DNA of 61,066 nucleotides from a virus. This document shows positions 1 through 61,066 of this stretch, piece after piece. Each line of letters starts with the position of its first letter. Position 1 is the first letter of the stretch. A model generated the notes under the pieces. It was not told the origin of the DNA. It made no database searches and saw nothing but the letters and a program-made list of their open reading frames with translations. The DNA lies in IMG/VR virus record IMGVR_UViG_3300007734_000736, positions 1 through 61,066 of that record; one strand, given 5' to 3'. The position numbers were made by a program, and so were the translations under genes.

Positions 1-127
1 GCGCCGTGTCGGTGAGTGATTACAGATGGGTGTACTGAGATGTATCCAGTCTTGCCTTTGTGCAGCTCTTTTTGACGCCAGAAGTACGTGCCTCCGCCTT
101 CGTAGTCGTCATTCAAAGCAAGCACCA
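1..127. repeat. Terminal redundancy, left copy (circular closure)
   Basis: Bases 1-127 match 60940-61066 base for base. A length of 127 equals the usual largest k-mer of short-read assemblers, and the repeat lies inside a coding frame that continues across it. It is therefore best read as the overlap of a circular contig, not a biological direct terminal repeat. Confidence 0.95.
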
Positions 128-2276
128 TAGAGATGGATGCACTATCGTGGTGAAGAGCCAAATGACCTTGGATAGCCTCATCGTATTTGATGATGAAGTT
201 TTCGCTTGACATGTTGGTCCACTCCTGTCCTTCTAGTGCCCATTTTTTAATGGCCACTGGATATACATACTCCTCAAGAATGCGCTGGTAGTGCTCCTGA
301 AGTCCGAGCTCATTGATGAGCATGTCACAGGTCGGATAGAAATAGTGACGATTGCGAGTCCAACGACCAGAGTCTTCCGCTTGCTGGATGAGCAAGCTAC
401 AGAACTCTTCCGTAAAGAGCGGGAACACAAATACGTCATTGATGGGCTCATCAACGATAAGCTCCCATTCTTTCGTGCGCGCAGAGTAGGTCACAAAGCG
501 CTGAACAAACTCCTCGTAGGAATAGTTAGATAGATTCATTTCAATTGATTTTGGTTGGTTTTCGGTAGTGGATGTCTCCTTGGTGCTGCTCTGACCGAAC
601 ACCGCTGGAGTTAGCGCAAGGGCCTTGCTGTCTTTCCAAATCCATGAAAGGTCTTTCCGAGGGTGGTCGCAGAACGTAGCACTCAAGAACTCGTCAAGCG
701 GAATGATTGACTTGTCAAAGTTCTGCTCAAGCAGCAAGCGACAGCCTTCGTTTGTGAGCATGTATGCGTGGGTGGTGTACGTGTAGTCTGGCTCTACCAC
801 GCTGTCCGAAATCCTTCTCTTTGGCTGGCGCACAAAGCTGTGGCCCAAGTACAGGATGGTCCATGGCTCTTGGATGGCATCAACCTCAATTGAATTGAAT
901 TGGCGCAGTACGGTGAAGTCCTCCTCCAGGATTAGGATTCGCTTGTATCCATTCTCATAGGCGTCCTTCCATACGCGCCAGTGAGACACGGCACAGCCAA
1001 TCTCTCCCGGAAGAACATCTCGGTTCCACCAGCTGTTGTCGCTGGCAATCTTCCAGTCCTTCCACACGTTGATGCCCGGGGGCATTAGCGAACCAGTATA
1101 GCCGTTTGTGGCATCAAAGATTGTCATGCCTCCAGACTTCACCCCAGAGCCAATGAATCGCTCCAAAAGCTCAAAACGAATCTGAGAGTCTGGGTTGAGT
1201 GATATGATGTAGGTATGGTCTACATCCAAATACTTGTAGTCTCCAGAGGATGGAGTCTTAATGGCGGTGAAGCCACTAAGCTGCTCAAGCGGTATATCAA
1301 CTGTATTTACCATTGTTTTTGATTGAAGTTTGTAAAATAGTGATTTCCATTCATTTACGACGTTGCTCCACCATCTGGTCATAACGTATTCATTTACACA
1401 TTTCCAACAGCTGATGTCGTAAGCAAATTCGCTTAGCGTATCTGCAAGTCCAGCTATTGGGTTGACAATGGGCCTGACCCTGTGTGCAAGCATTTCAATT
1501 GCCGTTATGCAATAAGTCTCATTGTAGCTTGTCGGATAATACCAGTGTTCCATTTGACTGAGCAGCTTATAGAGCTGCTCCGTCTCAAGGGAACCGTGGT
1601 ACTTGATTGACTTGTTGCGCAATACTCTGTCAAGGAAGTTGACATTGAAGTAGTCAACTCCATACTCTGGAGTGGCAATGTGCAGTGTTCCCGTTATCTT
1701 GCCAGACTCAAAGTCATCAAGCACTTTGCCTAGGCCTCTCTCCGCGTGAGACGTATACACATAGGAGTCCTTAATTTTTTTGACTGGATTATGGATTTTG
1801 TGCTGGTCTATGCCGTTTCCAATCACATCAACTTTCTCGGCATCTATGTTGTATCTAGATAGAAAGTCGTTCTTGTGCCATCTGGTAAGGCAAACGATTG
1901 AATCTGAGAGGTCAAAAGCTTCTTGTATGTCATGGTCGGACATCCGCTCTCCATTTAGCCACATGTACGGCTCCTCATTGTGAAGCCAGAATATGCGATG
2001 CTTTACGCTTGAGCCGTCAAACAGTTTGACGTAGTGTAGGTATCCAACGCCGATGAGTATGTCTATCGAATCAGGAAGCAAATCGCGCCGCTCAAACGGC
2101 GCGTATTGCACCGAATCATAGTTGCCCTCTAAGACGTTACCAAACACAAACACATTGTGTCCGGCCACCGACAGCTGATAAGACAAGTTGACCACGCATT
2201 GCTCAGTGCCACCTGGAATCTTTGTGCTCGAGTTCCATGGCTTCGCAAAGTAGCCAACATGAAAGACAATGTTCAT
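1..2276 (-). CDS. GT4-GT25-lysyl hydroxylase fusion, N-terminal and main part (gene crosses the circular junction)
   Basis: An uninterrupted frame runs from ATG at 2276 to base 1 and continues at 60939 down to TAA at 60879-60881, giving about 778 residues. The start overlaps the preceding stop (ATGA). Residues 1-310 look like a GT-B, GT4-type glycosyltransferase: IPGGTE near 20-25 and an E-x7-E motif at E253/E261. Residues 355-562 look like glycosyltransferase family 25, the collagen galactosyltransferase/LPS family: YIISLNPDSQ at 356-365, GEIGCAVSHW at 424-433, LILEED at 448-453, PLDEFL at 526-531. A Ser/Thr-rich linker (563-580) leads to a procollagen-lysyl-hydroxylase (PLOD) domain with HHD at 709-711, YEGGGTYF at 725-732, and H757 and R767. 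The 10-residue His-Arg spacing is as in PLODs. Expected iron ligands are H709, D711 and H757, with R767 binding 2-oxoglutarate. Inferred job: hydroxylate lysines of the neighbouring collagen-like protein and add one or two sugars. Confidence 0.9.
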   Translation of the reverse strand, partial: MNIVFHVGYFAKPWNSSTKIPGGTEQCVVNLSYQLSVAGHNVFVFGNVLEGNYDSVQYAPFERRDLLPDSIDILIGVGYLHYVKLFDGSSVKHRIFWLHNEEPYMWLNGERMSDHDIQEAFDLSDSIVCLTRWHKNDFLSRYNIDAEKVDVIGNGIDQHKIHNPVKKIKDSYVYTSHAERGLGKVLDDFESGKITGTLHIATPEYGVDYFNVNFLDRVLRNKSIKYHGSLETEQLYKLLSQMEHWYYPTSYNETYCITAIEMLAHRVRPIVNPIAGLADTLSEFAYDISCWKCVNEYVMTRWWSNVVNEWKSLFYKLQSKTMVNTVDIPLEQLSGFTAIKTPSSGDYKYLDVDHTYIISLNPDSQIRFELLERFIGSGVKSGGMTIFDATNGYTGSLMPPGINVWKDWKIASDNSWWNRDVLPGEIGCAVSHWRVWKDAYENGYKRILILEEDFTVLRQFNSIEVDAIQEPWTILYLGHSFVRQPKRRISDSVVEPDYTYTTHAYMLTNEGCRLLLEQNFDKSIIPLDEFLSATFCDHPRKDLSWIWKDSKALALTPAVFGQSSTKETSTTENQPKSIEMNLSNYSYEEFVQRFVTYSARTKEWELIVDEPINDVFVFPLFTEEFCSLLIQQAEDSGRWTRNRHYFYPTCDMLINELGLQEHYQRILEEYVYPVAIKKWALEGQEWTNMSSENFIIKYDEAIQGHLALHHDSASISMVLALNDDYEGGGTYFWRQKELHKGKTGYISVHPSVITHRHG

Positions 2277-2833
2277 CGCTCGGTTGAGAAAAAGAACGTC
2301 TGGAAAAGCCTGCCGTTCTCCTTGCTGTTCCCAAAATAGTCAAGTGACGTATGGAATTGCTTACCCTGGTATAAAATCAAACGATTGTAGACGTTCCCAA
2401 CAGACGAAACTAACTCCCATTTGGTCATGTCTTGAGAGTCGTTATTCCACGTCCCCTTGCCTCCATTATCAGACCACATGAGACCAGTACTCTTATGTTT
2501 GAAGAATCCAGTACCGCTAGACAGTGGGGCGTTGGGAGTTAGGTATACCACGCCGGCCCACTTGGTGCCATGGTCAGCGTGAATCCAAGACCTATCTCTA
2601 GCTGTTGTTATCTGGAATGCGCCATTGTAGTCATCGGTTGGGAAGTAGTTAATCTTTCCCGCAAATGGCTCTACAATGTGCTGTAGCGTATCAAACACGC
2701 TTTGATTGAACTCTGGCTTAGTCCTTGCTCCTGGAAAATTCCCAGTAACAGGAAAATCCTGCGCTAGGGCAAACTCCCTAACCTCGTCTGGATTGTTGTA
2801 GAAACCATCTACAACGAACGCACTCATTACCAT
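2273..2833 (-). CDS. 2-oxoglutarate/Fe(II) oxygenase-like protein (DUF6445-like)
   Basis: This 186-residue protein has the double-stranded beta-helix signature of 2OG-Fe(II) oxygenases: a WIHADHG segment giving the HxD pair H85/D87, a distal H161 in QGKQFHTSLDYF, and R175 fourteen residues later as the probable co-substrate arginine. The overall pattern resembles the DUF6445 family, recalled and not searched. It lies directly after the collagen-like gene and overlaps the start of the GT4-GT25-lysyl hydroxylase gene by four bases, so the two are translationally coupled. Inferred role: a hydroxylase acting on the collagen-like fibre or on a sugar added to it; the target residue cannot be read from sequence. 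Translation could start at 2833 or at the in-frame ATG at 2827. Confidence 0.8.
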   Translation of the reverse strand: MVMSAFVVDGFYNNPDEVREFALAQDFPVTGNFPGARTKPEFNQSVFDTLQHIVEPFAGKINYFPTDDYNGAFQITTARDRSWIHADHGTKWAGVVYLTPNAPLSSGTGFFKHKSTGLMWSDNGGKGTWNNDSQDMTKWELVSSVGNVYNRLILYQGKQFHTSLDYFGNSKENGRLFQTFFFSTER

Positions 2834-2912: not shown

Positions 2913-5900
2913 TTAGGTCCAAATTGGGAAGTAGTAGTCTGTTCCTCCAACTCCAACCTTTCCCCATCCATACGTTGTTTTACCGGTATCGTCTGGGACC
3001 TCTGCGTTAAATCCACATGCCCCACATGTCACGCTAGACGCAGCGACGTTGACACTTCCAGTAGCTCCTTTCTGTCCTTTAGGACCTTGTGAGCCAGTGG
3101 GTCCAGTTGCGCCGGTTGGGCCAGTTGGGCCAGTTGGTCCAGCAGGTCCTTGAGCTCCAGTGTTACCTTTTGCTCCCTGGGGTCCAGTAGGACCAGCAGG
3201 TCCTTGAGGTCCCGTGGCTCCCTGAGCGCCAGTGTTGCCCTTCGCTCCCTGAGGTCCGGTTGGGCCAGTGGCTCCAGTATTTCCCTTCGCTCCCTGTGGT
3301 CCAGTTGGTCCGGTAGGTCCGGTAGGTCCAGTAGGACCAGTTGCTCCGGTGTTTCCTTTTGCTCCTTGAGGACCAGTGGGTCCGGCAGGTCCTTGAGGTC
3401 CAAGAGGGCCCGTAGGTCCGGTGGGACCCTGGGGTCCAGTAGCACCAGTTGCGCCTTTTTGGCCCTTTGTTCCTTGAGCTCCAGTTGGACCAGTGGGTCC
3501 GGCAGGTCCTTGAGGTCCAAGAGGGCCCGTAGGTCCGATGGGACCCTGGGGTCCAGTAGGTCCTTGCGCTCCAGTAACTCCCTTTTGCCCCTTTGCGCCT
3601 TGAGGTCCAGTAGCGCCAGTTGGGCCAGTGGGCCCAGTGGCTCCTTGAGGACCGGTTGGTCCCTGGGCTCCAGTTACACCTTTTTGACCCTTTGCTCCCT
3701 GGGGACCAGTAGGTCCAGTGGCTCCTTGAGGACCGGTTGGTCCCTGCGGTCCAGTCGGTCCTTGAGCTCCAGTAACTCCCTTCTGGCCTTTAGCGCCCTG
3801 GGGCCCAGTAGGCCCAGTAGGACCGGTAGGACCTTGGGCTCCTTGCGCTCCCTTTTGCCCCTGAGCACCCTGAGGACCAGTTGGTCCAGTTGCACCTTGG
3901 GGTCCAGCTGCTCCAGTGTTACCCTTGGCACCCTGGGGCCCGGTAGGTCCCGCGGGTCCTTGTGGCCCAAGAGGACCAGTAGGCCCAGTAGGACCTGTTG
4001 GCCCAGTTGCGCCTTGAGGTCCAGTTACACCTTTTTGACCTTTTGAGCCCTGAGCACCAGTGGCCCCCTGAGGTCCAGTAGGTCCGGTTGGTCCAGTAGC
4101 TCCAGTTGCACCTTTTTGACCCTTAGGTCCTTGGTCTCCAGTTGGACCCATGTCGCCCTTGTCTCCCTTTCCGCCTTTTTCTCCCTGAGCTCCAGTAGCA
4201 CCAGTGGCTCCCTGAGCACCAGTATTTCCCTTGGGGCCCTGGGGTCCAGTAGGACCAGTGGGCCCAGTGGCTCCTTGAGGACCAGTAGCACCAATCTCAC
4301 CCTTTTGTCCCTTCGGGCCCTGAGGTCCGGTTGGTCCAGTGGGACCAGTAGCGCCCTGCGGGCCAGTAGCACCTTGAGCACCGGTATCGCCCTTAGGACC
4401 CTGTGAGCCATCACGGCCTTTGTTTCCCTGGTCGCCCTTGGTTCCCTTGTCTCCAACTGGGCCAACAGGTCCGGTCGGACCAGTCGGGCCCGTAGCTCCT
4501 TGGGCACCAGTGTTTCCCTTCGCTCCCTGCGGACCAGTTGGTCCTTGGGCACCAGTATTACCCTTTGCTCCCTGCGGACCAGTTGGTCCCTGGGGACCAG
4601 TGGGCCCAATGTCTCCTTTGGGTCCCTGGGGACCAGTGGGTCCAACATCTCCCTTGGGGCCTTGGGCTCCAGTGGGTCCGGTAGGACCAGTAGGTCCAGT
4701 GGGTCCCTGGGCTCCAGTTACACCTTTTTGACCTTTTGCGCCCTGAGCACCAGTTGGGCCAGTGGGGCCAGTAGGACCGGTTGCGCCCTGTGGGCCTGTT
4801 GCGCCAGTGTCGCCTTTGGGCCCCTGTGAGCCATCACGGCCCTTTTGGCCTTGGTCTCCTTTAGTCCCCTTGTCTCCAGTAGGGCCGGTAGGACCAGTAG
4901 GACCGGTAGGCCCAGTAGCACCCTGGGGGCCAACATCACCTTTCGGACCTTGGGCACCAGTAGGACCAGTAGGTCCAGTGGGACCAGTGGCTCCCGTGGC
5001 ACCTTTTGTTCCCTGAGGGCCGGTAGGGCCGGTAGGTCCAGTGGGGCCCTGGGCTCCAGTATCACCCTTAGGCCCTTGAGAACCATCGCGGCCCTTATTG
5101 CCCTGGTCTCCCTTGTTCCCTTGAGGACCAGTTGGACCAGTAGGGCCGGTGGGTCCGGTAGCCCCTTGAGCACCAGTATCTCCTTTTGGACCAGTAGGAC
5201 CAGTAGGACCAGTGGGGCCAAGGTCTCCTTTAGGGCCCTGCGCTCCAGTTGGACCAGTGGGTCCAGTAGGACCAGTGGGGCCAAGGTCTCCTTTTGGTCC
5301 TTGGGCACCGGTATCGCCCTTAGGACCCTGAGAACCATCACGACCTTTTTGGCCCTGGTCTCCCTTGTTCCCTTGAGGACCAGTTGGACCAGTAGGACCA
5401 GTAGGCCCAGTGGCTCCTTGGGCTCCAGTATCTCCTTTTGGACCAGTAGGTCCGGTAGGACCAGTTGCTCCTTGGGGACCGGTATCGCCTTTGGGCCCCT
5501 GGGAGCCATCACGGCCTTTTTGACCTTGGTCGCCCTTATCGCCCTGTGGCCCGGTAGGTCCAGTGGGTCCTGTGGGGCCAGTAGGTCCAGTAGCACCTTG
5601 AGGACCGAGGTCTCCTTTAGGACCCCGGTCTCCTTTAGGGCCCTGGTCTCCTTTTGGTCCTTGAACTCCGTCTCGACCCTTTTCTCCTTTTAAGCCCTGT
5701 TCTCCTTGCGGTCCGGCAGGTCCAGTGGGGCCTGTGGGTCCTGTGGGCCCTTGAGGACCAAGGTCGCCCTTGGGGCCCTGGGCTCCAGTGTTGCCCTTGG
5801 GTCCAATGTCTCCTTGCGGTCCAGTTGCTCCAGTCGCACCTTTTTGACCCTGGTCTCCTTTGGGACCAACGTCTCCTTTGGGGCCTTGGTCTCCTTTAGG

Positions 5901-7142
5901 GCCTTGGTCTCCCTTAGGACCTTGGTCTCCTTTTGGTCCAGTGGCCCCATCACGACCTTTTTCTCCTTTTGAACCCTGGTAGCCCTTATCGCCCTGAGGT
6001 CCGGTTGGACCAGTGGGACCGGTAGGTCCGGTAGGTCCAGTTGCTCCAGTTACACCCTTTTGGCCCTGGTCTCCCTTGGGACCCTGGTCGCCTTTAGGAC
6101 CTTGAACCCCATCACGACCTTTTTCTCCTTTTGAGCCCTGGTCGCCCTTTTCTCCTTGAGGTCCGGCAGCGCCAGTATTTCCCTTTGCTCCGGTAGGACC
6201 CTGAGGACCAAGGCCTCCCTTAGGACCTTGAGGTCCAATGTCGCCCTTGGGACCAATGTCTCCTTGAGGGCCAGTTGCTCCTTTAGGACCAGTAGCTCCA
6301 TCACGACCTTTTTCACCCTTTCCTCCCTGGTCTCCCTTATCTCCCTGAGGCCCGGTGGGTCCAGTGGGACCAGTGGCACCTTGGGGGCCAAGGTCTCCTT
6401 TGGGACCTTGAGCCCCGGTGTCCCCCTTGGGACCTTGAATTCCAGTATCTCCTTTCTGTCCTTTAGGACCTTGTGAGCCAGTGGGTCCAGTTGCGCCGGT
6501 TGGGCCAGTTGGGCCAGTTGGGCCAGTTGGTCCAGCAGGCCCTTGAGCTCCAGTGTTACCTTTTGCTCCCTGTGGTCCCTGAGGCCCTGTTGGTCCGGTA
6601 GGTCCAGCGGGTCCTTGAGCTCCAGTGTTACCTTTTGCTCCCTTGGGTCCTTGAGGACCAGTTGGTCCAGTAGGTCCAAGCGGTCCCTCTCTTCCTTTCT
6701 CGCCCTTCGAGCCTTGAGGTCCAGTTGGTCCAGTTGGACCAGCGGGCCCTTGAGGTCCTGTGGCTCCCTGAGCTCCGGTATTACCCTTCGCTCCCTGAGG
6801 TCCGGTTGGGCCAGTGGCTCCAGTATTTCCCTTCGCTCCCTGTGCTCCAGTTGGTCCGGTAGGTCCGGTAGGTCCAGTAGGACCAGTTGCTCCGGTGTTT
6901 CCTTTTGCTCCTTGAGGACCAGTGGGTCCGGCAGGTCCTTGACTTCCAGTATCTCCCTTTGGGCCAGAAGGACCAGCAGGACCAGTAGCTCCGGGGGCAC
7001 CCTTGTCTCCTTTTGCAGAAGCACCTCCAGATGCACCCTTAGCTCCCTTGGTTCCTTTTGAACCAGGGAGCTGCTGAACTCCATTATTGGTAATCTCTAC
7101 AGAGGATGGGCCAGGAAGGTTGATGTCAATTTCTAATGCCAT
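2913..7142 (-). CDS. Collagen-like fibre protein (1409 residues)
   Basis: A 26-residue N-terminal segment is followed by an almost unbroken Gly-X-Y domain (about residues 27-1362) and a 47-residue C-terminal cap containing CGAC and ending YYFPIWT. One early interruption occurs near GGASAKG. Typical triplets are [21 protein letters not shown] and GQK. Lysine sits in the Y position and is followed by Gly, the context used by collagen lysyl hydroxylases. Proline is nearly always in X and threonine is very common in Y. I noticed only one Y-position Pro, a GAP near the N-terminus. Such proteins form trimeric triple helices in phage fibres. The upstream neighbour is a probable fibre-base protein; downstream follow three oxygenases and two glycosyltransferase domains. 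The long antisense and shifted frames here are composition artefacts. Confidence 0.95.
3065..3396. repeat. Duplicated block inside the collagen gene, copy near the 3' end
   Basis: Bases 3241-3396 match 6787-6942 over 156 bp with one mismatch that I can see. Bases 3065-3180 match 6449-6573 apart from one extra 9-bp triplet unit and small changes. This block codes for the C-terminal end of the Gly-X-Y domain and repeats the sequence coding for its N-terminal end. Confidence 0.85.
6449..6942. repeat. Duplicated block inside the collagen gene, copy near the 5' end
   Basis: Partner of the block at 3065-3396, about 3.4 kb away in the same orientation. Because the flanking collagen code is itself repetitive, the exact borders are soft. 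Confidence 0.85.
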
Positions 7143-7143
7143 A

Positions 7144-7527
7144 CTAGTTTACAGTAATATCTTGAGTAATAGTAAATTGACCATACATGTAGGTAGTAAC
7201 TACGTCTGGGTTCGGGGTTGGATTAGTAGCTTGAATTTCATAAACAAACGTACCAGCGTTTACCAACATATTAGGGGCACTAATAGTAACAGTAAGAACC
7301 CCAAGAGCTGTTCCGGTTACAGTGATGTTTGAACTTGCAATTACAATAGGACCAGTGTCATATTCACGGACTTCCATCTTCCAGGTGAACACGCTAAGGT
7401 CTACGGCCGTACCGTTTGCGTCCTTGATGGTGGCAATCAAAACAAATGTGTCTCCGCGCCAACAAACGATGTCTACGCGAGTGGCAATACTTACGACTGC
7501 TGTAGGGGTTGTATCACAACACGACAT
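7144..7527 (-). CDS. Fibre-base or baseplate-upper-like small protein
   Basis: This 127-residue, beta-rich protein ([16 protein letters not shown], then alternating strands ending [11 protein letters not shown]) resembles the N-terminal Ig/jelly-roll domain of BppU-type fibre adaptors. It lies two bases upstream of the collagen-like gene and shares its promoter (TAAATTTG at 7532-7539). The inference is that it anchors the collagen fibre to the virion. No enzymatic motif is visible. Confidence 0.6.
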
Positions 7528-7531
7528 AGCG

Positions 7532-7539
7532 CAAATTTA
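7532..7539 (-). promoter_or_regulatory. TAnnTTTG promoter element (TAAATTTG)
   Basis: A Bacteroidota-type -7 box lies five bases before the ATG of the fibre-base gene; it could drive the fibre-base, collagen and modification operon. It sits in the short gap after the portal gene start region is read through, and no clear -33 TTG is visible. Confidence 0.5.
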
Positions 7540-9975
7540 CTGGTTAGTTAGTGCATCCATTAGACCCGAGTTGAAGGCTGGAGCCTCTTCGCCTTTGCGC
7601 TGAGAAATCAATTTAGACTGAGCTTCAGCCTGTTTGTTGATTCGAGCGTCCTTTCTGTTTTCCTTCATCGCATCAGTCATTTCTTGTGTCTGACCACGAA
7701 CAGCTTGAGACTCGACCATACCCTGATTTTTTAGCTGTTGAAGCTCCATCTCATACGAGTATTGAAGCTGCATTAACTGGGCTTTTGCTTCGGTTTCAAG
7801 TTGGATTTTTTGAGCTTCAAGTTGTGCCTTCAACTGCTCTGCTTGCATCGTAGACTGAGCAGCAACTTGAGCAGCCTGTGCATTAGCTTCAGCTTGGAAC
7901 TGAGCCTGCTGCTGAGCTTCATCCATGCGCTGCTTCATGCGCTTTTTGCGGCGAACAACCAGAAGGCGCTCCGCTTGCTCTGGGTCGCGGAGCTGACGGA
8001 TAGCAATAGCGTCCTCAAGGTCAATCTCTTTTTGAGATAGGGCCATGTTGATGTTTTGCTCCAGGTAGATTTTGGAGCGGTCGTCCATTTCTCCCATTAC
8101 GATGACGCCAAAGTTGTACATCGAGAGGTTATCAAACGAACTCAGGATGGCCATGTTGGTCTCCCCAATGGCGTTGGTGTAAACCTTGTAGATGATGCTC
8201 TTGGGCGGGATTACCTGCAAGCAGCGCACGATGTCCTCACAGACCTTCTTGTAAAGGACCTGTGCGGCGTGAGTGATGTCGTAGGTTGCGTTGTTTGAAG
8301 CGGCAATGGCCTGCTCGCGAACGCCCACAAGCGCATCTGCCTTTGGGGTGCTTGCGTCAACTACCTCATTGATTCCCGTTGCGTCGCGAATCATGCGCAG
8401 GTAGTGGTTGTACAATGCGACCAACTCTTGGATGTTGCGGATGGCATTGCCAATCTCCCGCACCGGCGGGTTTTGGAACCCGCCTTCGGGATTCTTAGAG
8501 CGGTAGTAGAATACACCAGTTTGCTCGTAGATGTCCTGAATCTCCAGAGGCTGCAGTTCTCCACCCCGTCCGAGCTGTACGTTCTCCAGGCCTTCGATAT
8601 CGATGATGAGTCCATCAGGCTTAGCCTTGGCAATGGACTGCTGAATCTTCAAGTGAGTGATTTGAAGCATGTCTCCAAATCCAATCACACTTGACACCAT
8701 TGACTTCGGAATCATACCGCGAAGGTTCGTGGCTACGCAAGAGTATGAAAGGCGAGCGCGAGCAATATCATGTACGTTCTTCGGGATGTTCTTCTGAACT
8801 CCGTAGTTGTACATCAGCTCAGTACCAATTACGTACACGCCACCGTAGACGGTAGCGTTCTTCATGTACACAGCCTCGCGGTCGAATACTGATTGCTGCG
8901 GGGCGTTGTAGCTGTGGCCTTTGTAGTAGAACCCGATGTTGCCAAACTTGGACTCTTTCTTTTCGAACACGATGTCGTCTACCGACATGAATTCAAACTC
9001 CATGATTTGGACCTTGTACTCGTCGTATCCGTAGCGGTAGCGGTTGCTGATGGTCTCGTAGTTGTAGCCTTGGGTAGCGTAGCGCAGCGGGTCATTTCCG
9101 TAACGGTTCATTACCGTTTGGGCAATCTGTTGGTACTGCTCTTCGGTAAACTGATTTCCTGCAAGACGCTTGAGCTCCATGATGGTTACCGTACGGAAGT
9201 GACCAGCGTAGGTCAGGTCCGCCATGTTGGGGTCGTCCGTGTAGTTGTGGATGAAGTATGCCGGGTCTACGTACTGCTCACGAATGCCGTAGTTAGGGTC
9301 ATTGGTGCGCTTGGTAATGGCGATGCCGCACGTAACGAGGTCCTCAACGCAGCGGCGGTAGATGCCGTCGTCGAAGTCGTTCCACGTAAGAGTCATTTCC
9401 GTGGCCAGCTGTGCAGCAATCTCTGCATCAGTTTTCACGTTCGTGTCCAGGAAGATTTCCGTTTCCTCGGGAGTGTCCGGAAGCGAGTCCGGGTCAACGC
9501 GCACGTTCAAGCCAAGAGCCTTTGCCTCTTGGAGCATCTCCTTGTTTTCGATGTGAAGGATGGTGGCGTTCTTCTTTTTGTCTTTCTCGCTGCGTGACAA
9601 CGGGTCAACAGCCTGTACTTGTGGGTAGGGCTTGCGAGACAGAATCTTGTTTACGACGATGCGAACAAACTTGGGAATGATGGGAACTGGAGTGTAGTCC
9701 AGCGTAAGCATCGTTCCGTCTCCGTTGTTGGCATCCAGTGAGCTCAAGATTTGCCGATAGATGGACGTGTCTTGAGTTCCTTGAGCATAGTCTCGGTTGT
9801 TCTGCATTTCATTGAACCGACGACCATACAATGAATTGTTGTAGTCAACCCCAATCCACTGAGCATACATGGCCTTAGCATACTGAAGGCCATAGGATTG
9901 CGACATCTTTTCTTCCGTACTCGCTAGCGGGTCCGGGAACGTAGATTGACCTTTTGCTGTATAATCTCTTTGCAT
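7537..9975 (-). CDS. Portal protein
   Basis: This 812-residue protein lies immediately downstream of the terminase, the usual portal position. It has the mixed alpha/beta body of large portals (LDYTPVPIIPKFVRIVVNKI near residue 95) and an extended Gln/Ala-rich coiled-coil C-terminus (about 690-770) that would form the barrel. Length and position fit crAss-like and related podoviral portals. Its role is the dodecameric ring through which DNA enters and leaves the capsid. It has its own TATATTTG promoter element at 9997-10004. Confidence 0.85.
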   Translation of the reverse strand: MQRDYTAKGQSTFPDPLASTEEKMSQSYGLQYAKAMYAQWIGVDYNNSLYGRRFNEMQNNRDYAQGTQDTSIYRQILSSLDANNGDGTMLTLDYTPVPIIPKFVRIVVNKILSRKPYPQVQAVDPLSRSEKDKKKNATILHIENKEMLQEAKALGLNVRVDPDSLPDTPEETEIFLDTNVKTDAEIAAQLATEMTLTWNDFDDGIYRRCVEDLVTCGIAITKRTNDPNYGIREQYVDPAYFIHNYTDDPNMADLTYAGHFRTVTIMELKRLAGNQFTEEQYQQIAQTVMNRYGNDPLRYATQGYNYETISNRYRYGYDEYKVQIMEFEFMSVDDIVFEKKESKFGNIGFYYKGHSYNAPQQSVFDREAVYMKNATVYGGVYVIGTELMYNYGVQKNIPKNVHDIARARLSYSCVATNLRGMIPKSMVSSVIGFGDMLQITHLKIQQSIAKAKPDGLIIDIEGLENVQLGRGGELQPLEIQDIYEQTGVFYYRSKNPEGGFQNPPVREIGNAIRNIQELVALYNHYLRMIRDATGINEVVDASTPKADALVGVREQAIAASNNATYDITHAAQVLYKKVCEDIVRCLQVIPPKSIIYKVYTNAIGETNMAILSSFDNLSMYNFGVIVMGEMDDRSKIYLEQNINMALSQKEIDLEDAIAIRQLRDPEQAERLLVVRRKKRMKQRMDEAQQQAQFQAEANAQAAQVAAQSTMQAEQLKAQLEAQKIQLETEAKAQLMQLQYSYEMELQQLKNQGMVESQAVRGQTQEMTDAMKENRKDARINKQAEAQSKLISQRKGEEAPAFNSGLMDALTNQ

Positions 9976-10014: not shown

Positions 10015-12117
10015 TCAGCGTAAGATGACCCGACCAGGGCGGAAGAACTTCTTTACATCAAAGTTGGTTTTCTCTTTCTTGACCGTCGCTCCTTGCGCTG
10101 CTAAAAGCGCAAGGCCGCTGGAGATGGAAAGGTCAAATGCAGTACGGTCGTCAACCTTGAAGTTAATCCAATCTTCAAGGGTTCGGTCAAAATACATCTT
10201 CCCAAATTCCATGGTCTCTTCGTTCACTCCAACGTGAGAATGGATGAACGCTTCAATGGCTTGAGCATGTGCCTGAATGATGTCCTGCGAGTTCGACGGA
10301 ATACCCTTTGTTTTGCTTCCTCCTCCATATCCAGAACCAAGGTGTTCAGGCCTGTTCATCAGGTAGTTATCGTATCCGCGCTGCTCAAAATATCGTGCGA
10401 TTCCATACTTGTTGTTCTCAATCAGAATTGAGTATCCATAGAACTTCGCCGCCATTAGAACGTCCTCATAGAATATCTTGGCCAGCGGAGGACGTGAAGC
10501 ATACTCTGCAACAAACATGTTTGCCGGATACTGCAGGTTGAACTTGTTGTACAGATGGCACGCGCCCTTAGAGCCGCGGCCATCTACGGTAGCATCAATG
10601 TCGTAGGAGTCAACTCCACCCACACCGAGCCATTCGTTCTGTGGACCCTGTTTGTTTCTGAGCTCATACGGGGGCATCCAAGCCACTCTCCAGCGTCCAT
10701 TTGCATCCGGCTTGAAGTAGACCTCAGTGTCTTGCTTTCCGTCCTTCCAGACAAAGTTTCCGACAAGGATTGGGTTTGGGTACAAGTCCTGGTTGTACTG
10801 AATCTGTTCGTATATCTTCTGGACGTTGAACACCGAGGCCTTGGCGCTGTCACGAAATGCCTCTGCCTCGCTGAAAGGGAACTGGCGAATCACCTCGTTG
10901 AGTTCGTAGCTGTCGTTCACTAGGGCCTTTCTCTCGTTCTTCAGGAATGTCTTGGCTCCGATGGTGACCATATTCCCGTCGATACCAAGGATTGGCACCT
11001 CTGGGTCTTCAACTATAGGATGACCGTAGACATCGAAGAATCCCTCTAGCGACTCATAGGCAGGCATGAACAGCCTGTAGAGACCGCTCTTGGTGCGTCC
11101 GTTTTCGTTTCGTTCGTTTGGGTTGCTGCTGTACACCAGGTCCCGGAACTGTCGGCCCCCTTTGTCAAGGGGGTTTACCGTGCTTCCTACGATAGCCTTT
11201 CCTACGATGTTTCTACCAACCAACAGACAGGTGCGATGAATTCGCCAAGACTCGCGAATGTCGCTTGGCTTCTCCCACTTGCCAGCCTCATCCATGTACA
11301 GGATATGAAGTTTCTCACCGTCATAAGCGTTGTTTGTTGTGTTCTTCCAGTTGATTACCGTGTTGAGGGCGTCTCCTCGGGTGGCCGTCTTGACCTTCTT
11401 GGTGATTCGCTTTGATGGCTCGCGAAATGCAAGCTCCATGCGCGGGTTGGTGGTACCGTCCTGGATGGGCTTGAAGAAGAATGGCAGCGACTTGTAGATT
11501 GGCATTACCTTCTTCATGAAGATGTTCTCCTGCGCATCACCACCCGTCTTGGACATGATACCCAACAGCTTGTCTTTTACCTGAGAACCCTCGTTAACCA
11601 GCACTGAAGAGGTCATCTGCGTATATCCGGAACGACGGCACTTGACGTACACCTGGCCAAGGCATCTGTCGTCCACAGCACAGGCTTCCATGTGCAGGAA
11701 CAGCGTTCTCTGGAAGCTCAAGAACTCAGGATAGCCGATATCAATCTTGGCCCACTGAAGAAAGAAGTAGTGATTTCCAGTTATGTACGTTGGAACACCG
11801 TTGTTGTAGAACCACACGCCTTTTCTCCTGCGCTCAAACTCCTGAGATATGTAGCCCATGTAGCGCTTCTTGAACTCCTCTGGCATGGCGGCCCACTCGT
11901 CCATAGTCTTAATGCGCTGGATGTCGTCCGGTAGCTCAAGTCGAGTCCATCGTTGCTCGTGCTGAGGAAGGTCGTGAAAAAGGATTTTCTTCTTGTCTGG
12001 CTGCTTTGGAAGCTGGATTGGCAAATCGCCAATCACCTCGACATCCCCCATGGTTCCGTCGTGGCAAATACTGACAACCTGCCCAGTATAATCCTTATGT
12101 TCAACAAGACCAGCCAT
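10015..12117 (-). CDS. terL: Terminase large subunit
   Basis: This 700-residue DNA-packaging ATPase/nuclease has a variant Walker A segment CRRSGYTQ (160-167), a Walker B LYMDEAGK (273-280), a coupling-like VGSTVNP (310-316) and an RNase-H-type nuclease start GVDSYDID (501-508). The N-terminal ITGNHYFFLQWAKIDIGYP region resembles terminases of crAss-like phages. It cuts concatemeric DNA and pumps it through the portal encoded next. The start is fixed by a TAATG overlap with a 39-residue upstream ORF. Confidence 0.93.
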   Translation of the reverse strand: MAGLVEHKDYTGQVVSICHDGTMGDVEVIGDLPIQLPKQPDKKKILFHDLPQHEQRWTRLELPDDIQRIKTMDEWAAMPEEFKKRYMGYISQEFERRRKGVWFYNNGVPTYITGNHYFFLQWAKIDIGYPEFLSFQRTLFLHMEACAVDDRCLGQVYVKCRRSGYTQMTSSVLVNEGSQVKDKLLGIMSKTGGDAQENIFMKKVMPIYKSLPFFFKPIQDGTTNPRMELAFREPSKRITKKVKTATRGDALNTVINWKNTTNNAYDGEKLHILYMDEAGKWEKPSDIRESWRIHRTCLLVGRNIVGKAIVGSTVNPLDKGGRQFRDLVYSSNPNERNENGRTKSGLYRLFMPAYESLEGFFDVYGHPIVEDPEVPILGIDGNMVTIGAKTFLKNERKALVNDSYELNEVIRQFPFSEAEAFRDSAKASVFNVQKIYEQIQYNQDLYPNPILVGNFVWKDGKQDTEVYFKPDANGRWRVAWMPPYELRNKQGPQNEWLGVGGVDSYDIDATVDGRGSKGACHLYNKFNLQYPANMFVAEYASRPPLAKIFYEDVLMAAKFYGYSILIENNKYGIARYFEQRGYDNYLMNRPEHLGSGYGGGSKTKGIPSNSQDIIQAHAQAIEAFIHSHVGVNEETMEFGKMYFDRTLEDWINFKVDDRTAFDLSISSGLALLAAQGATVKKEKTNFDVKKFFRPGRVILR

Positions 12118-38465: not shown

Positions 38466-38580
38466 TGCCGACCGACTTCACAACACTATACGCAAATTCA
38501 AACGAGACATCGACGGCGAATTCGATATGATTCGCGCGGCGCTGCTGGAATACTACGATGATAACATTGATATTCCTTGA
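38353..38580 (+). CDS. Hypothetical helical protein (75 residues)
   Basis: The first 113 bases overprint the RusA C-terminus. Helical and acidic (IDGEFDMIRAALLEYYDD). Its stop overlaps the start of the glycosyltransferase. Composition looks like a real protein. Unknown role. Confidence 0.55.
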   Translation: MDKEELSRTYFLATSRISNAATSLYESLHDEAGSPRVDADRLHNTIRKFKRDIDGEFDMIRAALLEYYDDNIDIP

Positions 38581-39523
38581 TGGCCTAAACGGCATCAACT
38601 ACCACCGCCTAATGACTCCCTTTCTCCGCCTCAAAGCGGAGGAGGGAGTCAACATCCATTTCTTCTCCAGCTTTGACGAGCTGAAGCAGTTTGACATGAC
38701 CAAGGTTGGGTCTGTTGTGGTGTCTCGGCGCTGCACGGTGTCCAACTATGCGGAGTTCAAGAAGTGGCTCAAGAAATACAAGGTGAAGCTCATCCTGGAT
38801 AACGACGACTTCTGGGAGCTGCCAGATGATAACCCAGCTCAGGAGATTTACAAGAAGCAGGTGTCGCGCGAGATTCTAGCCAGCATCCGTATCGCAGACG
38901 AGATATGGACGCCATCTCCCACGTTGGCGCACAAGATGAAGAAGGTAAACAAAAATATACCTTACCGAATCATCCCCAACACCATCTACGAGAAAGAAGA
39001 GCAATGGGTCAACCAAGAGAAGGACCCCAACCCGAAAGGGCTTGTGCGGTTTGGATATACCGGTGCCAACGGACACCGCAACGACATCCTGTCCATGGGT
39101 ATGACCTTTGAGAACCATGAGCTCTACTGCATGAACCTGATGGACTATCCAGACATCATGCGAGCCAAGTACACGATGTACCCACTTGACATCCACCTAT
39201 ATGCGCAGCTCTACCGACACTTTGATGTGTCGTTAGCGCCGCTGCTGAACAATAAGTTCAACCGCTGCAAGTCCGAGCTGAAGGTGGTAGAAGCTGGCTA
39301 TACCAAGACAGCCATTATCGCATCGAACACTACGCCATACAAGGAGACCATCATTCACAACAAGACAGGAATCCTCTGCTCCAGTCCTGACGACTGGAGA
39401 AAGGCCGTGAACGAAATGACGTTGGAGAAGGCAAAGAATCTTGCCGGGGAGCTATATGAGTTCTGCAAGAAGAACTACGACATCTCCCAAATCAACAAGG
39501 AGCGACTCAAGGGCTTAGTATAG
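38558..39523 (+). CDS. GT-B (GT4-like) glycosyltransferase
   Basis: 321 residues. The N-terminal half is Rossmann-like (VSRRCTVSNYAEFKKWLKK, KVKLILDNDDF). The C-terminal half holds HFDVSLAPL and KSELKVVEAGYTKTAIIASN, the donor-binding E-x-G-like region of family 4, and a GILCSSPDDW segment. It probably adds a sugar to a phage or host glycan. Last gene of the early operon, facing the lysis cassette. Confidence 0.8.
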   Translation: MITLIFLDGLNGINYHRLMTPFLRLKAEEGVNIHFFSSFDELKQFDMTKVGSVVVSRRCTVSNYAEFKKWLKKYKVKLILDNDDFWELPDDNPAQEIYKKQVSREILASIRIADEIWTPSPTLAHKMKKVNKNIPYRIIPNTIYEKEEQWVNQEKDPNPKGLVRFGYTGANGHRNDILSMGMTFENHELYCMNLMDYPDIMRAKYTMYPLDIHLYAQLYRHFDVSLAPLLNNKFNRCKSELKVVEAGYTKTAIIASNTTPYKETIIHNKTGILCSSPDDWRKAVNEMTLEKAKNLAGELYEFCKKNYDISQINKERLKGLV

Positions 39524-56992: not shown

Positions 56993-58387
56993 TTAGGCCT
57001 TGATAAGGATGTGCTGGTTGGCGGCACGCGTAACCAGAGCGCACTCCGAACGGTAGTTGAACTGCAGTGAGTCCTCGTTCGTGTTAGCAACGCCCAGGAT
57101 AGAACCGGTCATCCAGTGCTCCATTTCACGGCTGTAGCCGTTCGTGTCCTTGTAGTTAAGCTCCAAGGCAGCGGCGCGGTTGCCGGTCTTGGGGTCAACA
57201 ACAGTAGTCATCGGAATCATCACACCGAGGTACTTAGAACCAGACAACAAGGTCGGGTCGTTCAGAAGCTTCCAAGAGTGCTTGTGGAACGTGTAAGAAC
57301 CACGAGAGAATGATTTGAATCCGAGCATAGCGGCTTCGTTTACTTTACCACCGAAGGCGTTAACACCAATGGTAGCGCTACCGAATCCAGCAGCTCCGTT
57401 CAACGAGGCAACCATGTCGTCGATGTCCAGGTCTTGAGCCGTATTGACGTACATGGCGTACTCGGGAGCAGCGCCTTGCTTGTCAAGTTCAGCAACCAAG
57501 ATGTCCATTTCAGCAAGGCTGTCGATGAGGCCAGACTGTACGATACCGCGGTTTTCGATGGCAGAGAAGTAGCCTTCGCCAGCCGTAGGAAGACCTCCGA
57601 TGTTCGTAGTGGTCAGGGTGTTGCTGATGCTTTGACCAAGCAACAACATCATTTCACGCTTATCGAGGAAACGAGCACGAGTGTCCATTTCGCCCTTAAC
57701 GTACCAGCGGTAGTCGCCGTTACCTACGTTAACCCAGCCAATGTTGGTGGCTTGAGAACCGGTAACCTTGAATACTTCCTTGATGATGCTGTAAGCGTTG
57801 GTACGCTTGATTACGTTAGACTCCAAGTATCCGTTGTTCTGGTCAGAACCTTGAGCAAACAGGTTTCCGATAACCGGAAGGTTAACAGAAGCCGTGCTTA
57901 CAGAAGCGGTCAAACCAGAGCTAGAAAGAGCCTGGAAGGTGTAGTTAGCGGTAGCGTTGTTTGCGATTTCACCGGTCGGGCTGATGGCCGTAACGATGAA
58001 GCGGTCTTGACCACCAACAAGAACTACGTCATTCAAACGAAGAACAGAAGCGTCGCTGGTTGCCTTTGCTCCTACGAAGGTCGTAGCGGCGGCAGCGGCA
58101 GAAGCCGTGGGAGCTACGGTAGCGTAGGCATGCAAGCGGGTTTCTTCCCAGTACTGAACCTCATCGGCGGTACCGTTTCCGCGTACTGCGCCTGTAAGGT
58201 TTAGGAACCCCGTAAGACCTCCGCTGATTTGCTGGTAACCGTAGGTCTTAACCAGTTGGTCGCGGTTGTCCGGAGCGTTTACTTCGTCGATGTAGTCGGC
58301 CAAGGAGGTGTACTTGGTCGGGTCAAGGCGGCGGAATACTGCTGCCTTGTTATCATTATACACGGGAGGTGCACTAGATGTAGCCAT
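56993..58387 (-). CDS. Major capsid protein
   Basis: 464 residues, Ala/Thr/Asn-rich with moderate charge, as in HK97-fold capsid proteins. Residues near 225-250 (GDYRWYVKGEMDTRARFLDK) resemble the spine-helix region of crAss-like capsids. It lies between the scaffold gene and a strong terminator, the expected place for the most abundant protein. No separate protease gene is visible. Confidence 0.8.
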   Translation of the reverse strand: MATSSAPPVYNDNKAAVFRRLDPTKYTSLADYIDEVNAPDNRDQLVKTYGYQQISGGLTGFLNLTGAVRGNGTADEVQYWEETRLHAYATVAPTASAAAAATTFVGAKATSDASVLRLNDVVLVGGQDRFIVTAISPTGEIANNATANYTFQALSSSGLTASVSTASVNLPVIGNLFAQGSDQNNGYLESNVIKRTNAYSIIKEVFKVTGSQATNIGWVNVGNGDYRWYVKGEMDTRARFLDKREMMLLLGQSISNTLTTTNIGGLPTAGEGYFSAIENRGIVQSGLIDSLAEMDILVAELDKQGAAPEYAMYVNTAQDLDIDDMVASLNGAAGFGSATIGVNAFGGKVNEAAMLGFKSFSRGSYTFHKHSWKLLNDPTLLSGSKYLGVMIPMTTVVDPKTGNRAAALELNYKDTNGYSREMEHWMTGSILGVANTNEDSLQFNYRSECALVTRAANQHILIKA

Positions 58388-58395
58388 GATTTATG

Positions 58396-59499
58396 CTAGA
58401 TTTTGAAAGTTAGAGTTTGCTGCCGGCCGAGCGCATCTAAGATTTGCTCAGCTAAGGCACTTTTTTGATTTTGTACTGGTGCAACCGGGCTAGAGGCGTC
58501 CACGTTGGCAGCGCGTTCAACGATTGCTCGCTGACCATCGCTAAGCCCCTGCTGGTAGATACTCTGCAAGATGTTCGGAAGATTATCCGTTACCGTGCGG
58601 TGCATGTTCCATAGGTCGTGGTCCCAATTACCCTGGTCGTCCATGTACTTATCGAAGAACTTTTCCATCTGCACATTCTCCTGAAACAGTTCGTTGCGGT
58701 AGGATTCGGGGACACCAAAGTTGAACTCTTTTCCATTGGGCAGGTCAAAAGAAATCTGTCCAAGTTCACCAAGAGACTGGTGCATTCCACGAAGCCAACC
58801 CTCATCGAATGGATTTTCGAATGATTCGACGGATTGTTGTCCTTCGAACTCAGGCATCTGAAACTGCTCACGGAGCTGTTCCATTTGCGTACGAGCTTTT
58901 GTAGCGTCAAGCTTTAGCTGGAGGGTACCGAGGCGAATATCATCTTCGCTGTAAATCGAATCGTCCAAGCGATACTTGCTTGAAAGAAGAAGATTTACCT
59001 CTTCGCTGGAAAGGTTAGGATATTCACTGGCGATATTGATTCGTACCGCGGTCAAGTCATCCATTTCGGATGGGTCTAGTGCCTGGTAGCGGAACCAATC
59101 TTCAGGAGAACGTCCTGTCTTAGCAACAAAGTCTGCGATAACCTGAATCCGAGGGTCAAGTTGAGCATACATGTCAGAGAAGTCTTCATCACTCATTTCT
59201 GAGAAGTCATCCGCAGGCGTTTCGCCGAAGATGTCGTCTGGAAACGGCATGAATCCTTCGCTGGTAGAAGGTTCTGTCAAAGAACTCGGCTCACTTTCCG
59301 GTTGCCCCTGAGCTTGAGGCTCAGGTGCCGCCGCAGGCTGAGTCGATTCCTGCGCTTGCGGAGCTGCCTCGGTTTGAGCCGGGGCAGGCTCCGTAAATTG
59401 TTCACCGGCATCATTCATCAGGGCTGCGGGCGGAGTATCCGACACCGTAAATCCCGCACTTGTGAGTGCCTGCTCCATTTGTGATTCAACTGATTGCAT
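58396..59499 (-). CDS. Scaffolding protein candidate
   Basis: 367 residues. A Pro/Gln/Ala/Glu-rich disordered N-terminus (about 30-80), a strongly acidic middle, and helical segments. Nine bases upstream of the capsid gene. Acidic helical proteins here are usually scaffolds for procapsid assembly. Confidence 0.72.
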   Translation of the reverse strand: MQSVESQMEQALTSAGFTVSDTPPAALMNDAGEQFTEPAPAQTEAAPQAQESTQPAAAPEPQAQGQPESEPSSLTEPSTSEGFMPFPDDIFGETPADDFSEMSDEDFSDMYAQLDPRIQVIADFVAKTGRSPEDWFRYQALDPSEMDDLTAVRINIASEYPNLSSEEVNLLLSSKYRLDDSIYSEDDIRLGTLQLKLDATKARTQMEQLREQFQMPEFEGQQSVESFENPFDEGWLRGMHQSLGELGQISFDLPNGKEFNFGVPESYRNELFQENVQMEKFFDKYMDDQGNWDHDLWNMHRTVTDNLPNILQSIYQQGLSDGQRAIVERAANVDASSPVAPVQNQKSALAEQILDALGRQQTLTFKI

Positions 59500-60279: not shown

Positions 60280-60879
60280 CTACTTATAGCTATTCCCCCC
60301 CGCCCAAAGGACCAAGGACTCACGCACTCCGCTAGTTACAGGAGTAACTCTGTGTAACAAATATGATGGAAAAATTATCACCGTGCCCTGGGCTTTTGAA
60401 GCTGTTGCCTCGCCAGAACCTGAGCGAATCTCTAGTTCTCCGCCCTGGTAATCATTTGGGTCGCTAAGCTGAACCACGAGAGAAATCTTACGAAAGGCAA
60501 GCTCATTAGGCCCAATGTCCATGTGCCAATTGTAGAAGCCTTTCTCAGTTGCCTCGTACTGGGTGTACTGAATTGAATCTTGAATGGACTGCAGGTCGAA
60601 CTGCCACATGTTATCATTGGCGATAGTCATGTAGTTCATCAGTCGGTCGTACAGCCAACCGTGGGGGTTGGCTCGGGGAATCCACTTGATGTTTGACTTA
60701 CGCACTTGATTGAGCGCTTCGTCTTCAAAATTGGCAGCTACTTGCCCACGAGAGATGGGAATTACGCTTGCCTCCTTCTTGATTTTGGCAATCTCCTCCT
60801 TGTTGAAAGCAGAGTCAAAGTAGTACCAGCCAGTCATATCGCGGCCTTTGCCGCGGTCAAATGTTGGATTGAGGTTCAT
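60280..60879 (-). CDS. 2-oxoglutarate/Fe(II) oxygenase (prolyl-4-hydroxylase/PiuC-like)
   Basis: 199 residues. WHMDIG gives H119/D121, YQGGELEI lies on the next strand, and H176 with R186 complete the metal and 2-oxoglutarate sites. This is the PKHD/P4H-type layout. The ATG overlaps the TAA of the GT4-GT25-lysyl hydroxylase gene (TAATG), so it is the last coupled enzyme of the collagen operon. Likely substrates are the collagen-like protein or its glycans; proline is less likely, since Y-position Pro is nearly absent there. Confidence 0.85.
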   Translation of the reverse strand: MNLNPTFDRGKGRDMTGWYYFDSAFNKEEIAKIKKEASVIPISRGQVAANFEDEALNQVRKSNIKWIPRANPHGWLYDRLMNYMTIANDNMWQFDLQSIQDSIQYTQYEATEKGFYNWHMDIGPNELAFRKISLVVQLSDPNDYQGGELEIRSGSGEATASKAQGTVIIFPSYLLHRVTPVTSGVRESLVLWAGGNSYK

Positions 60880-61066
60880 TATTTATTTCGGTTACAGAAT
60901 GAAACAAGTACAAAGCGCTTACCCTTGGTTACTGCACGTGCGCCGTGTCGGTGAGTGATTACAGATGGGTGTACTGAGATGTATCCAGTCTTGCCTTTGT
61001 GCAGCTCTTTTTGACGCCAGAAGTACGTGCCTCCGCCTTCGTAGTCGTCATTCAAAGCAAGCACCA
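60879..61066 (-). CDS. GT4-GT25-lysyl hydroxylase fusion, C-terminal end (continues from base 1)
   Basis: The last 61 codons and stop of the gene described at 1-2276. It carries the second half of the lysyl-hydroxylase domain: YEGGGTYFW, the metal ligand H757 in THRHG, and R767 in KGKRFVLVSF. Bases 60940-61066 duplicate 1-127; the unique part is 60879-60939. Read alone it would be mistaken for a small 2OG-oxygenase fragment. Confidence 0.9.
   Translation of the reverse strand, partial: VLALNDDYEGGGTYFWRQKELHKGKTGYISVHPSVITHRHGARAVTKGKRFVLVSFCNRNK
60940..61066. repeat. Terminal redundancy, right copy (circular closure)
   Basis: Identical to bases 1-127; see the left copy. Confidence 0.95.

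What the first reader, a model, noticed from the sequence alone, without database searches (positions are those of the whole stretch)
1..2276. A single phage protein joins a GT4 domain, a GT25 domain and a collagen lysyl hydroxylase
Seen: one open frame of about 778 residues with an E-x7-E GT4 motif, GT25 motifs (EIGCAVSHW, LILEED, PLDEFL) and a PLOD-type oxygenase (HHD 709-711, H757, R767). Known: animal collagen is modified by PLOD lysyl hydroxylases, then by GT25 galactosyltransferases and a glucosyltransferase; a giant-virus bifunctional hydroxylase/glycosyltransferase has been described. Inference: this phage enzyme performs hydroxylation, first sugar and perhaps second sugar in one chain. 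I know of no described phage protein with these three parts together. The junction of the linear contig hides it from ordinary ORF callers.
Basis: partly seen in the sequence, partly recalled or inferred. Interest (0 to 1): 0.96.

Follow-up and report, generated by a model that had tools for sequence, protein, structure and literature searches.

The report
Phage collagen-modifying triple-domain enzyme
A virus of bacteria carries, beside a gene for a 1,409-residue collagen-like protein, one gene that fuses a lysyl hydroxylase related to the animal collagen enzymes with two sugar-adding enzymes, and the same gene set recurs in many aquatic phages, so phages probably make hydroxylated, sugar-coated collagen as animals do.

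Summary
Relatives encode the same protein uninterrupted in mid-contig. The domains are a retaining-type GT4, a GT25 closest in solved structures to human ColGalT1, and a lysyl hydroxylase (LH) closest by sequence and model to human LH3 and mimivirus L230. In 26/26 GT4-type loci and 29/29 cyanophage-type loci with enough flank, a collagen gene lies upstream. LH-linked collagens are Lys-rich at Y and almost Lys-free at X. Most phage collagens without the enzyme are Lys-poor, including close relatives with collagen in the same genomic slot. The cyanophage/Roseobacter-phage form has a PLOD-type glucosyltransferase instead of GT4; the two never co-occur (72 versus 95 loci). Most likely: phage-encoded hydroxylation and glycosylation of virion collagen, with GT4 replacing the glucosyltransferase. 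Activity and sugars are untested. The chemistry is known from animals and mimivirus; I found no paper describing it in phages, and the GT4 architecture appears new.

The parts
1..2276 (-). 5' part (residues 1-758 plus two bases of codon 759) of the GT4-GT25-LH fusion gene; ATG at 2276
60879..60939 (-). 3' end of the same gene across the contig junction (residues 759-778, stop codon 60879-60881)
   Evidence: relatives L003-L007 have it uninterrupted
1317..2276 (-). GT4 (GT-B, retaining-type) domain, residues 1-320; G22G23, R180, E253-x7-E261
   Evidence: Pfam PF13439; residues invariant in 19/19; best model matches are retaining GT4 structures, e.g. 7fg9 1.5e-12
597..1226 (-). GT25 domain, residues 351-560; EIGCAVSHW, EED 451-453, DE 528-529
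   Evidence: Pfam PF01755 4e-12; ColGalT1 2e-15 and profile 2e-23
1..524 (-). Lysyl hydroxylase domain (residues 585-778, continuing across the junction at 60882-60939); H709-x-D711, H757, R767
   Evidence: L230 and LH3 about 5e-22, profile 2e-28 and 2e-26; model of the L003 relative: LH3 2.7e-17, L230 7e-17
2273..2833 (-). DUF6445 protein (186 aa), start-stop overlapping with the fusion gene; possibly a 2OG-oxygenase-like fold (inference)
   Evidence: Pfam PF20043 2e-12; no solved relative by sequence; kept at this position in most relatives
2913..7142 (-). Collagen-like protein, 1409 aa, 441 Gly-X-Y triplets, 99 with Lys at Y: the proposed substrate
   Evidence: PF01391 3e-198; counts
60280..60879 (-). 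2OG-Fe(II) oxygenase (199 aa), next gene downstream; PKHD/PiuC-like
   Evidence: PF13640 3e-14; PDB PKHD-type hydroxylase 1e-10
7144..7527 (-). 127-aa protein between portal and collagen gene, weak Ig-like (Invasin_D3) match
   Evidence: E 0.012, below cut-off
7537..9975 (-). Portal protein (context)
   Evidence: phrog_6547 1e-182
10015..12117 (-). Terminase large subunit (context)
   Evidence: phrog_6681 7e-193; nearest isolates infect Flavobacterium and Cellulophaga
56993..59499 (-). Structural genes that in relatives follow the portal directly (context; scaffold/major capsid assignment is inference)
   Evidence: phrog_13704 6e-106; gene order
60940..61066 (.). Copy of bases 1-127 (exact terminal direct repeat; its length of 127 suggests an assembler k-mer overlap of a circular or permuted genome)

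Best explanation
The protein is a three-in-one collagen lysine-modifying enzyme of a Bacteroidota-type podovirus. Its C-terminal domain hydroxylates Lys in Gly-X-Lys triplets of the neighbouring collagen-like protein, before the triple helix forms (inferred from LH homology). Its GT25 domain then places a first hexose on the hydroxylysine (inferred from ColGalT1 and L230 homology). Its GT4 domain adds a second, alpha-linked sugar, taking the place of the PLOD-type glucosyltransferase found in the cyanophage version (inferred from mutual exclusivity and retaining chemistry). The product would be a long glycosylated collagen fibre on the virion. Shown here by computation: the intact fusion, conserved catalytic residues, homology and fold, gene neighbourhood, and co-variation of Lys content with presence of the enzyme. 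Not shown: any activity, the sugars, or presence of the protein in the particle.
For: Intact conserved fusion. LH identity: (LH3/L230 about 1e-17; the next 2OG enzymes only 3e-7). GT25. GT4. Collagen gene upstream in 26/26 GT4-type and 29/29 GLT-type loci with at least 6 kb upstream. Lys at Y vs X: 4130 vs 3 of 10119 triplets (GT4-type), 1336 vs 0 of 5030 (GLT-type). Control collagens from viral contigs: median Lys-Y fraction 0; 4 of 66 without a detected enzyme exceed 10%, against 62 of 62 with it; one of those four (L113) is a truncated fragment of the window's own clade. The association holds in 13/13 clusters at 70% identity. Within-clade control: portal relatives L338, L345 and L358 have a collagen gene at the same place, no enzyme on the contig, and 0, 3 and 1 Lys-Y. 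GT4 and GLT never together: 72 vs 95 loci; L290 has win-type LH with separate GT25 and GLT genes. Collagen glucosyltransferases are retaining (PMC11838735); GT4 is a retaining family (established knowledge).
Against: No biochemistry. Lys preference for Y over X is common in bacterial collagens, so only Lys abundance, not its position, counts as evidence. Three Lys-rich phage collagens (L128, L186, L187) have no detected enzyme on their contigs, and three stand-alone LH genes (L291, L299, L302) have no convincing collagen on their contig fragments. Some GT4-type collagens have only about 9-13% Lys-Y. Mutual exclusivity of GT4 and GLT rests on few lineages. The full-length model is weak outside GT4 (mean pLDDT 67). 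GT4 donor and acceptor specificity cannot be read from sequence.
Confidence: 0.82

Rival explanations
1. LH and GT25 modify collagen lysine (one sugar), while GT4 does something else, for example glycosylates Thr in the abundant GPT triplets or acts on another virion protein.
For: Thr is the commonest Y residue in the window collagen (181 of 441). The mimivirus bifunctional enzyme L230 adds a single Glc (PMC9614988). Thr-type glycosylation is known for Bacillus BclA (own knowledge; BclA glycosylation in PMC8968730).
Against: GPT-rich collagens mostly occur in phages without this enzyme; some GT4-type collagens have very few Y-Thr (L023: 2 of 174, L024: 4 of 258) and keep GT4; GT4 and GLT replace each other.
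Confidence: 0.3
2. The enzyme remodels host surface polysaccharide (GT25 and GT4 as LPS-type transferases, oxygenase accessory), like seroconversion genes.
For: Bacterial GT25 enzymes act in LPS synthesis (Pfam name); phages often carry LPS-modifying transferases (own knowledge).
Against: The LH domain falls specifically with collagen lysyl hydroxylases; the gene lies in the structural block directly after the collagen gene in all assessable loci; collagen Lys content tracks the enzyme.
Confidence: 0.05
3. The oxygenase and transferases make hypermodified, glycosylated DNA bases.
For: Thymine oxidation followed by glucosylation is a known oxygenase-plus-transferase pairing (own knowledge); PHROG labels of two oxygenase matches mention DNA endonuclease.
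Against: LH-specific sequence and fold, no similarity to TET/JBP among top matches; linkage to collagen rather than to nucleotide genes.
Confidence: 0.02
4. Chimeric assembly artefact at the contig junction.
For: The gene spans the joined ends of a metagenome contig.
Against: At least 37 other distinct GT4-type enzymes from independent contigs, most with the gene in mid-contig; the repeat matches exactly and the frame continues to a conserved C-terminus.
Confidence: 0.01

Closest known systems
Mimivirus L230 (GT25-like N-terminus, LH C-terminus), with R655 (GT25, putative) and R699 (galactosylhydroxylysyl glucosyltransferase)
   Same: LH domain is the closest solved relative; GT25 plus LH in one chain; acts on viral collagen and adds Glc to hydroxylysine (PMC9614988, PMC9546862)
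   Different: Virus of amoebae; no GT4; the glucosyltransferase R699 is a separate PLOD-type protein; here three domains in one phage protein next to the collagen gene
Human LH3/PLOD3 plus ColGalT1 (solved as an LH3/ColGalT1 complex, PDB 8zgc)
   Same: Same two homologous activities, LH and GT25; animals assemble as a complex what the phage fuses
   Different: LH3 carries its own GT-A glucosyltransferase domain and has no GT4; ColGalT1 has two GT-A-type domains; secretory-pathway proteins
GT25-GLT-LH proteins of cyanophages S-CAM9, S-PRM1, S-8S53/55/56 and Roseobacter phage CRP-6 (annotated hypothetical or 2OG-Fe(II) oxygenase)
   Same: Same GT25 and LH partners, same order, collagen gene upstream wherever enough flank is present, adjacent 2OG oxygenases in the cyanophages
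   Different: PLOD-type glucosyltransferase domain (LH3 GT domain, profile E about 1e-47) between GT25 and LH instead of an N-terminal GT4; LH more diverged, with Lys instead of Arg at the 2OG-binding position

Membership tests
Collagen lysyl hydroxylase (PLOD/L230 type) | HxD...H iron triad and the 2OG-binding Arg | tested here: met
   H709-x-D711 and H757 conserved in all 18 of 19 rows that reach this far; R767 present and kept in the GT4-type rows of A4; LH3 His667/Asp669/His719/Arg729 per PMC6082870
Collagen lysyl hydroxylase (PLOD/L230 type) | LH-specific sequence and fold rather than a general 2OG oxygenase | tested here: met
   Sequence 5e-22; model of the L003 LH domain: LH3/L230 about 1e-17 and TM about 0.8, other 2OG enzymes no better than 3e-7
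Collagen lysyl hydroxylase (PLOD/L230 type) | Hydroxylates Lys in Gly-X-Lys | not testable with these tools
   Only indirect: Lys-Y enrichment with the enzyme
GT25 collagen hydroxylysine glycosyltransferase | GT25 fold with acidic metal motif (EDD/EED) | tested here: met
   PF01755 4e-12; EED 451-453 invariant; ColGalT1 best solved sequence match for this domain
GT25 collagen hydroxylysine glycosyltransferase | Transfers Gal (or Glc) to hydroxylysine | not testable with these tools
   Donor cannot be read from sequence
GT4 glycosyltransferase | GT-B fold with E-x7-E | tested here: met
   E253-x7-E261 invariant in 19/19; fold matches to GT4 enzymes
PLOD-type galactosylhydroxylysyl glucosyltransferase (LH3 GT domain, R699) | GT-A domain with DxxD | tested here: not met
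   No GLT match in GT4-type loci; present in the cyanophage type. The GT4 domain may work like it but is not a member

The most novel reading that the evidence does not exclude
Phages possess a self-contained route to glycosylated hydroxylysine disaccharides on virion collagen, in two architectures. In one the animal-like glucosyltransferase has been displaced by a structurally unrelated bacterial-type GT4, so that one polypeptide carries out all three steps. This could explain part of the long-unexplained 2OG oxygenases of marine phages and make phages a reservoir of collagen-modifying enzymes outside animals.
Probability: 0.5. Interest if true: 0.93.

Novelty: new variant of a known kind. 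Interest (0 to 1): 0.86.

Why it matters
Hydroxylysine-linked glycans on collagen are described for animals and mimivirus; a 2022 review treats phage collagens as short stretches in capsid proteins (PMC8968730), and a Baltic Sea study calls the use of prolyl hydroxylase by viruses cryptic (PMC9301287). Finding the LH/GT25 machinery fused, tied to a collagen gene and recurring in hundreds of aquatic viral contigs gives those oxygenases a testable purpose. Cultured phages (CRP-6, S-CAM9, S-PRM1) carry it, so the modification can be looked for in purified virions now. Compact single-chain enzymes from bacterial viruses could also be useful for making glycosylated recombinant collagen in E. coli.

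Tried and rejected
A bacterial source: the single genome-contig scan found only one distant GT25 match, but it used two short peptide patterns, so absence in bacteria is not proven. Pfam OGFOD2-like as a probe on control contigs: it rang nowhere, including control genomes, so it is uninformative; I used LH alignments instead. The full-length model was too weak for the LH part, so the LH domain of relative L003 was modelled separately. Considered and rejected: junction artefact, DNA modification, LPS modification (see rivals). Lys at Y rather than X was rejected as evidence by itself; only Lys abundance relative to controls is used. Prolyl 4-hydroxylation by the side oxygenases: Pro is almost absent from Y in these collagens, so a classical GPP substrate is unlikely; their substrates stay open.

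Full report
Observation. The 61,066-base record ends with an exact copy of its first 127 bases. Joined, the minus-strand frame from 2276 runs to a stop at 60879-60881 and gives 778 residues; 758 of them are open on the linear contig. Pfam finds GT25, GT4 and an OGFOD2-like oxygenase. Against solved structures the oxygenase part matches human LH3 and mimivirus L230 lysyl hydroxylase (about 5e-22) and the GT25 part matches procollagen galactosyltransferase 1 (2e-15). Five relatives at about 70% identity have the whole protein uninterrupted in mid-contig, so the junction is not an artefact. Compared with L003, all three domains show third-position-biased change while the linker at 321-350 is free.

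Domain identity. Profiles of 19 relatives reach L230 (2e-28), LH3 (2e-26) and ColGalT1 (2e-23). A model of the LH domain of the orthologue L003 (pLDDT 83) matches LH3 and L230 at about 1e-17, ten orders of magnitude better than any other 2OG oxygenase. The full-length model is reliable mainly for GT4, whose best structural matches are retaining GT4 enzymes, the first being an alpha-1,2-glucosyltransferase. GT4 (G22G23, R180, E253-x7-E261) and GT25 (E425, H432, EED, DE) residues are invariant in 19/19 rows, and the LH triad in every row that reaches it.

Neighbourhood. Two genes away lies a 1,409-residue collagen-like protein with 441 Gly-X-Y triplets, 99 with Lys at Y. Block order: portal, 127-aa protein, collagen, DUF6445, fusion enzyme, 2OG oxygenase, then further structural genes. 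In related phages (ctfjg026, Flavobacterium elemo phages) the portal is followed directly by structural genes, with no such cassette. The relatives point to a Bacteroidota-infecting podovirus; one structural protein has a crAss-type muzzle C-terminus.

How general. Scans of viral contigs gave two enzyme types. The window type (GT4-GT25-LH): 38 distinct enzymes, with a collagen gene upstream in 26/26 loci having at least 6 kb upstream. The cyanophage/CRP-6 type (GT25, PLOD-type glucosyltransferase, LH): 391 relatives in the scan, the best 80 kept, collagen upstream in 29/29 assessable. The glucosyltransferase domain matches LH3's GT domain (profile 1e-47 for the whole protein) with the DxxD motif kept. 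Across all loci GT4 occurs with GT25+LH in 72, the PLOD-type domain in 95, and both in none (overlapping fetches of the same contigs are included). Locus L290 has a window-type LH with separate GT25 and PLOD-type transferase genes and a roughly 1,780-residue collagen on the same contig.

Substrate co-variation. Collagens next to GLT-type enzymes have Lys at 1,336 of 5,030 Y positions and 0 X positions; those next to GT4-type enzymes 4,130 and 3 of 10,119. Collagens sampled from viral contigs by a Lys-neutral GPT pattern have a median Lys-Y fraction of zero. Sixty-two of 62 enzyme-linked collagens exceed 10% Lys-Y against 4 of 66 without a detected enzyme (Fisher 3e-32, not corrected for relatedness). 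Clustering enzymes at 70% leaves 13 clusters, all Lys-rich (0.18-0.67). Of the exceptions, L113 is a truncated relative of the window phage (portal 92% identical); L128, L186 and L187 remain unexplained. Several control contigs with Lys-rich collagen turned out to carry the enzyme (L116, L149, and cut-off copies in L118 and L138). A within-clade control: portal relatives L338, L345 and L358 have collagen in the same slot, no enzyme on the contig, and 0, 3 and 1 Lys-Y.

Mechanism. Best reading: LH hydroxylates Gly-X-Lys, GT25 adds the first hexose, GT4 adds a second alpha-linked sugar in place of the PLOD-type enzyme. The last step is the least certain (about 0.5-0.6). That collagen glucosyltransferases are retaining (PMC11838735) and GT4 is a retaining family makes the swap chemically plausible. 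Benefits to the virion (fibre hydration, stability, protection or adhesion) are speculation.

Comparison. Mimivirus L230, R655 and R699 are the closest known set (PMC9614988, PMC9546862). Humans form an LH3/ColGalT1 complex (PDB 8zgc). Ten literature searches of open-licence papers found no report of a phage collagen lysyl hydroxylase; subscription papers and preprints were largely out of reach, so novelty is judged on that basis.

Verdict. A real, conserved and unexpected enzyme. The kind of chemistry is known; the bearer (phages) and the GT4-containing architecture appear undescribed.

Noticed in passing
L008, L009, L010, L012-L014 (S-CAM9, CRP-6, S-PRM1, S-8S5x): Cultured cyanophages and a Roseobacter phage carry GT25-PLOD-type GT-LH fusions annotated as hypothetical or 2OG-Fe(II) oxygenase; in S-CAM9, S-PRM1 and CRP-6 the Lys-rich collagen-containing fibre gene was read beside them.
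   Followed up: yes
L290:4269-8211: GT25, window-type LH, a DUF6445-like gene, a second 2OG oxygenase and a PLOD-type transferase as separate neighbouring genes; the collagen is elsewhere on the contig.
   Followed up: partly
L291:9983-10672, L299:9923-10621, L302:5303-6097: Stand-alone lysyl-hydroxylase-like genes without a convincing collagen on their contigs; their substrates are unknown.
   Followed up: partly
L128, L186, L187: Lys-rich phage collagens with no detected LH enzyme on contigs of 198, 28.5 and 56.8 kb.
   Followed up: partly
A4 columns 196-202: Cyanophage-type LH domains have Lys where LH3, L230 and the window have the 2OG-binding Arg, so substrate or cofactor handling may differ.
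   Followed up: no
window 2273-2833 and 60280-60879: Two further genes (DUF6445 and a PKHD-like 2OG oxygenase) travel with the cassette; their substrates are open, and Y-position Pro is nearly absent from the collagens.
   Followed up: partly
window 38558-39520 (+): Another GT-B glycosyltransferase (weak Glycos_transf_1 matches) elsewhere in the genome.
   Followed up: no
window 49455-54485 (-): Large structural protein with a crAss-type muzzle C-terminal domain, which supports a Bacteroidota podovirus.
   Followed up: no
window 1-127 and 60940-61066: The terminal repeat of exactly 127 bases looks like an assembler k-mer overlap rather than a biological repeat.
   Followed up: no
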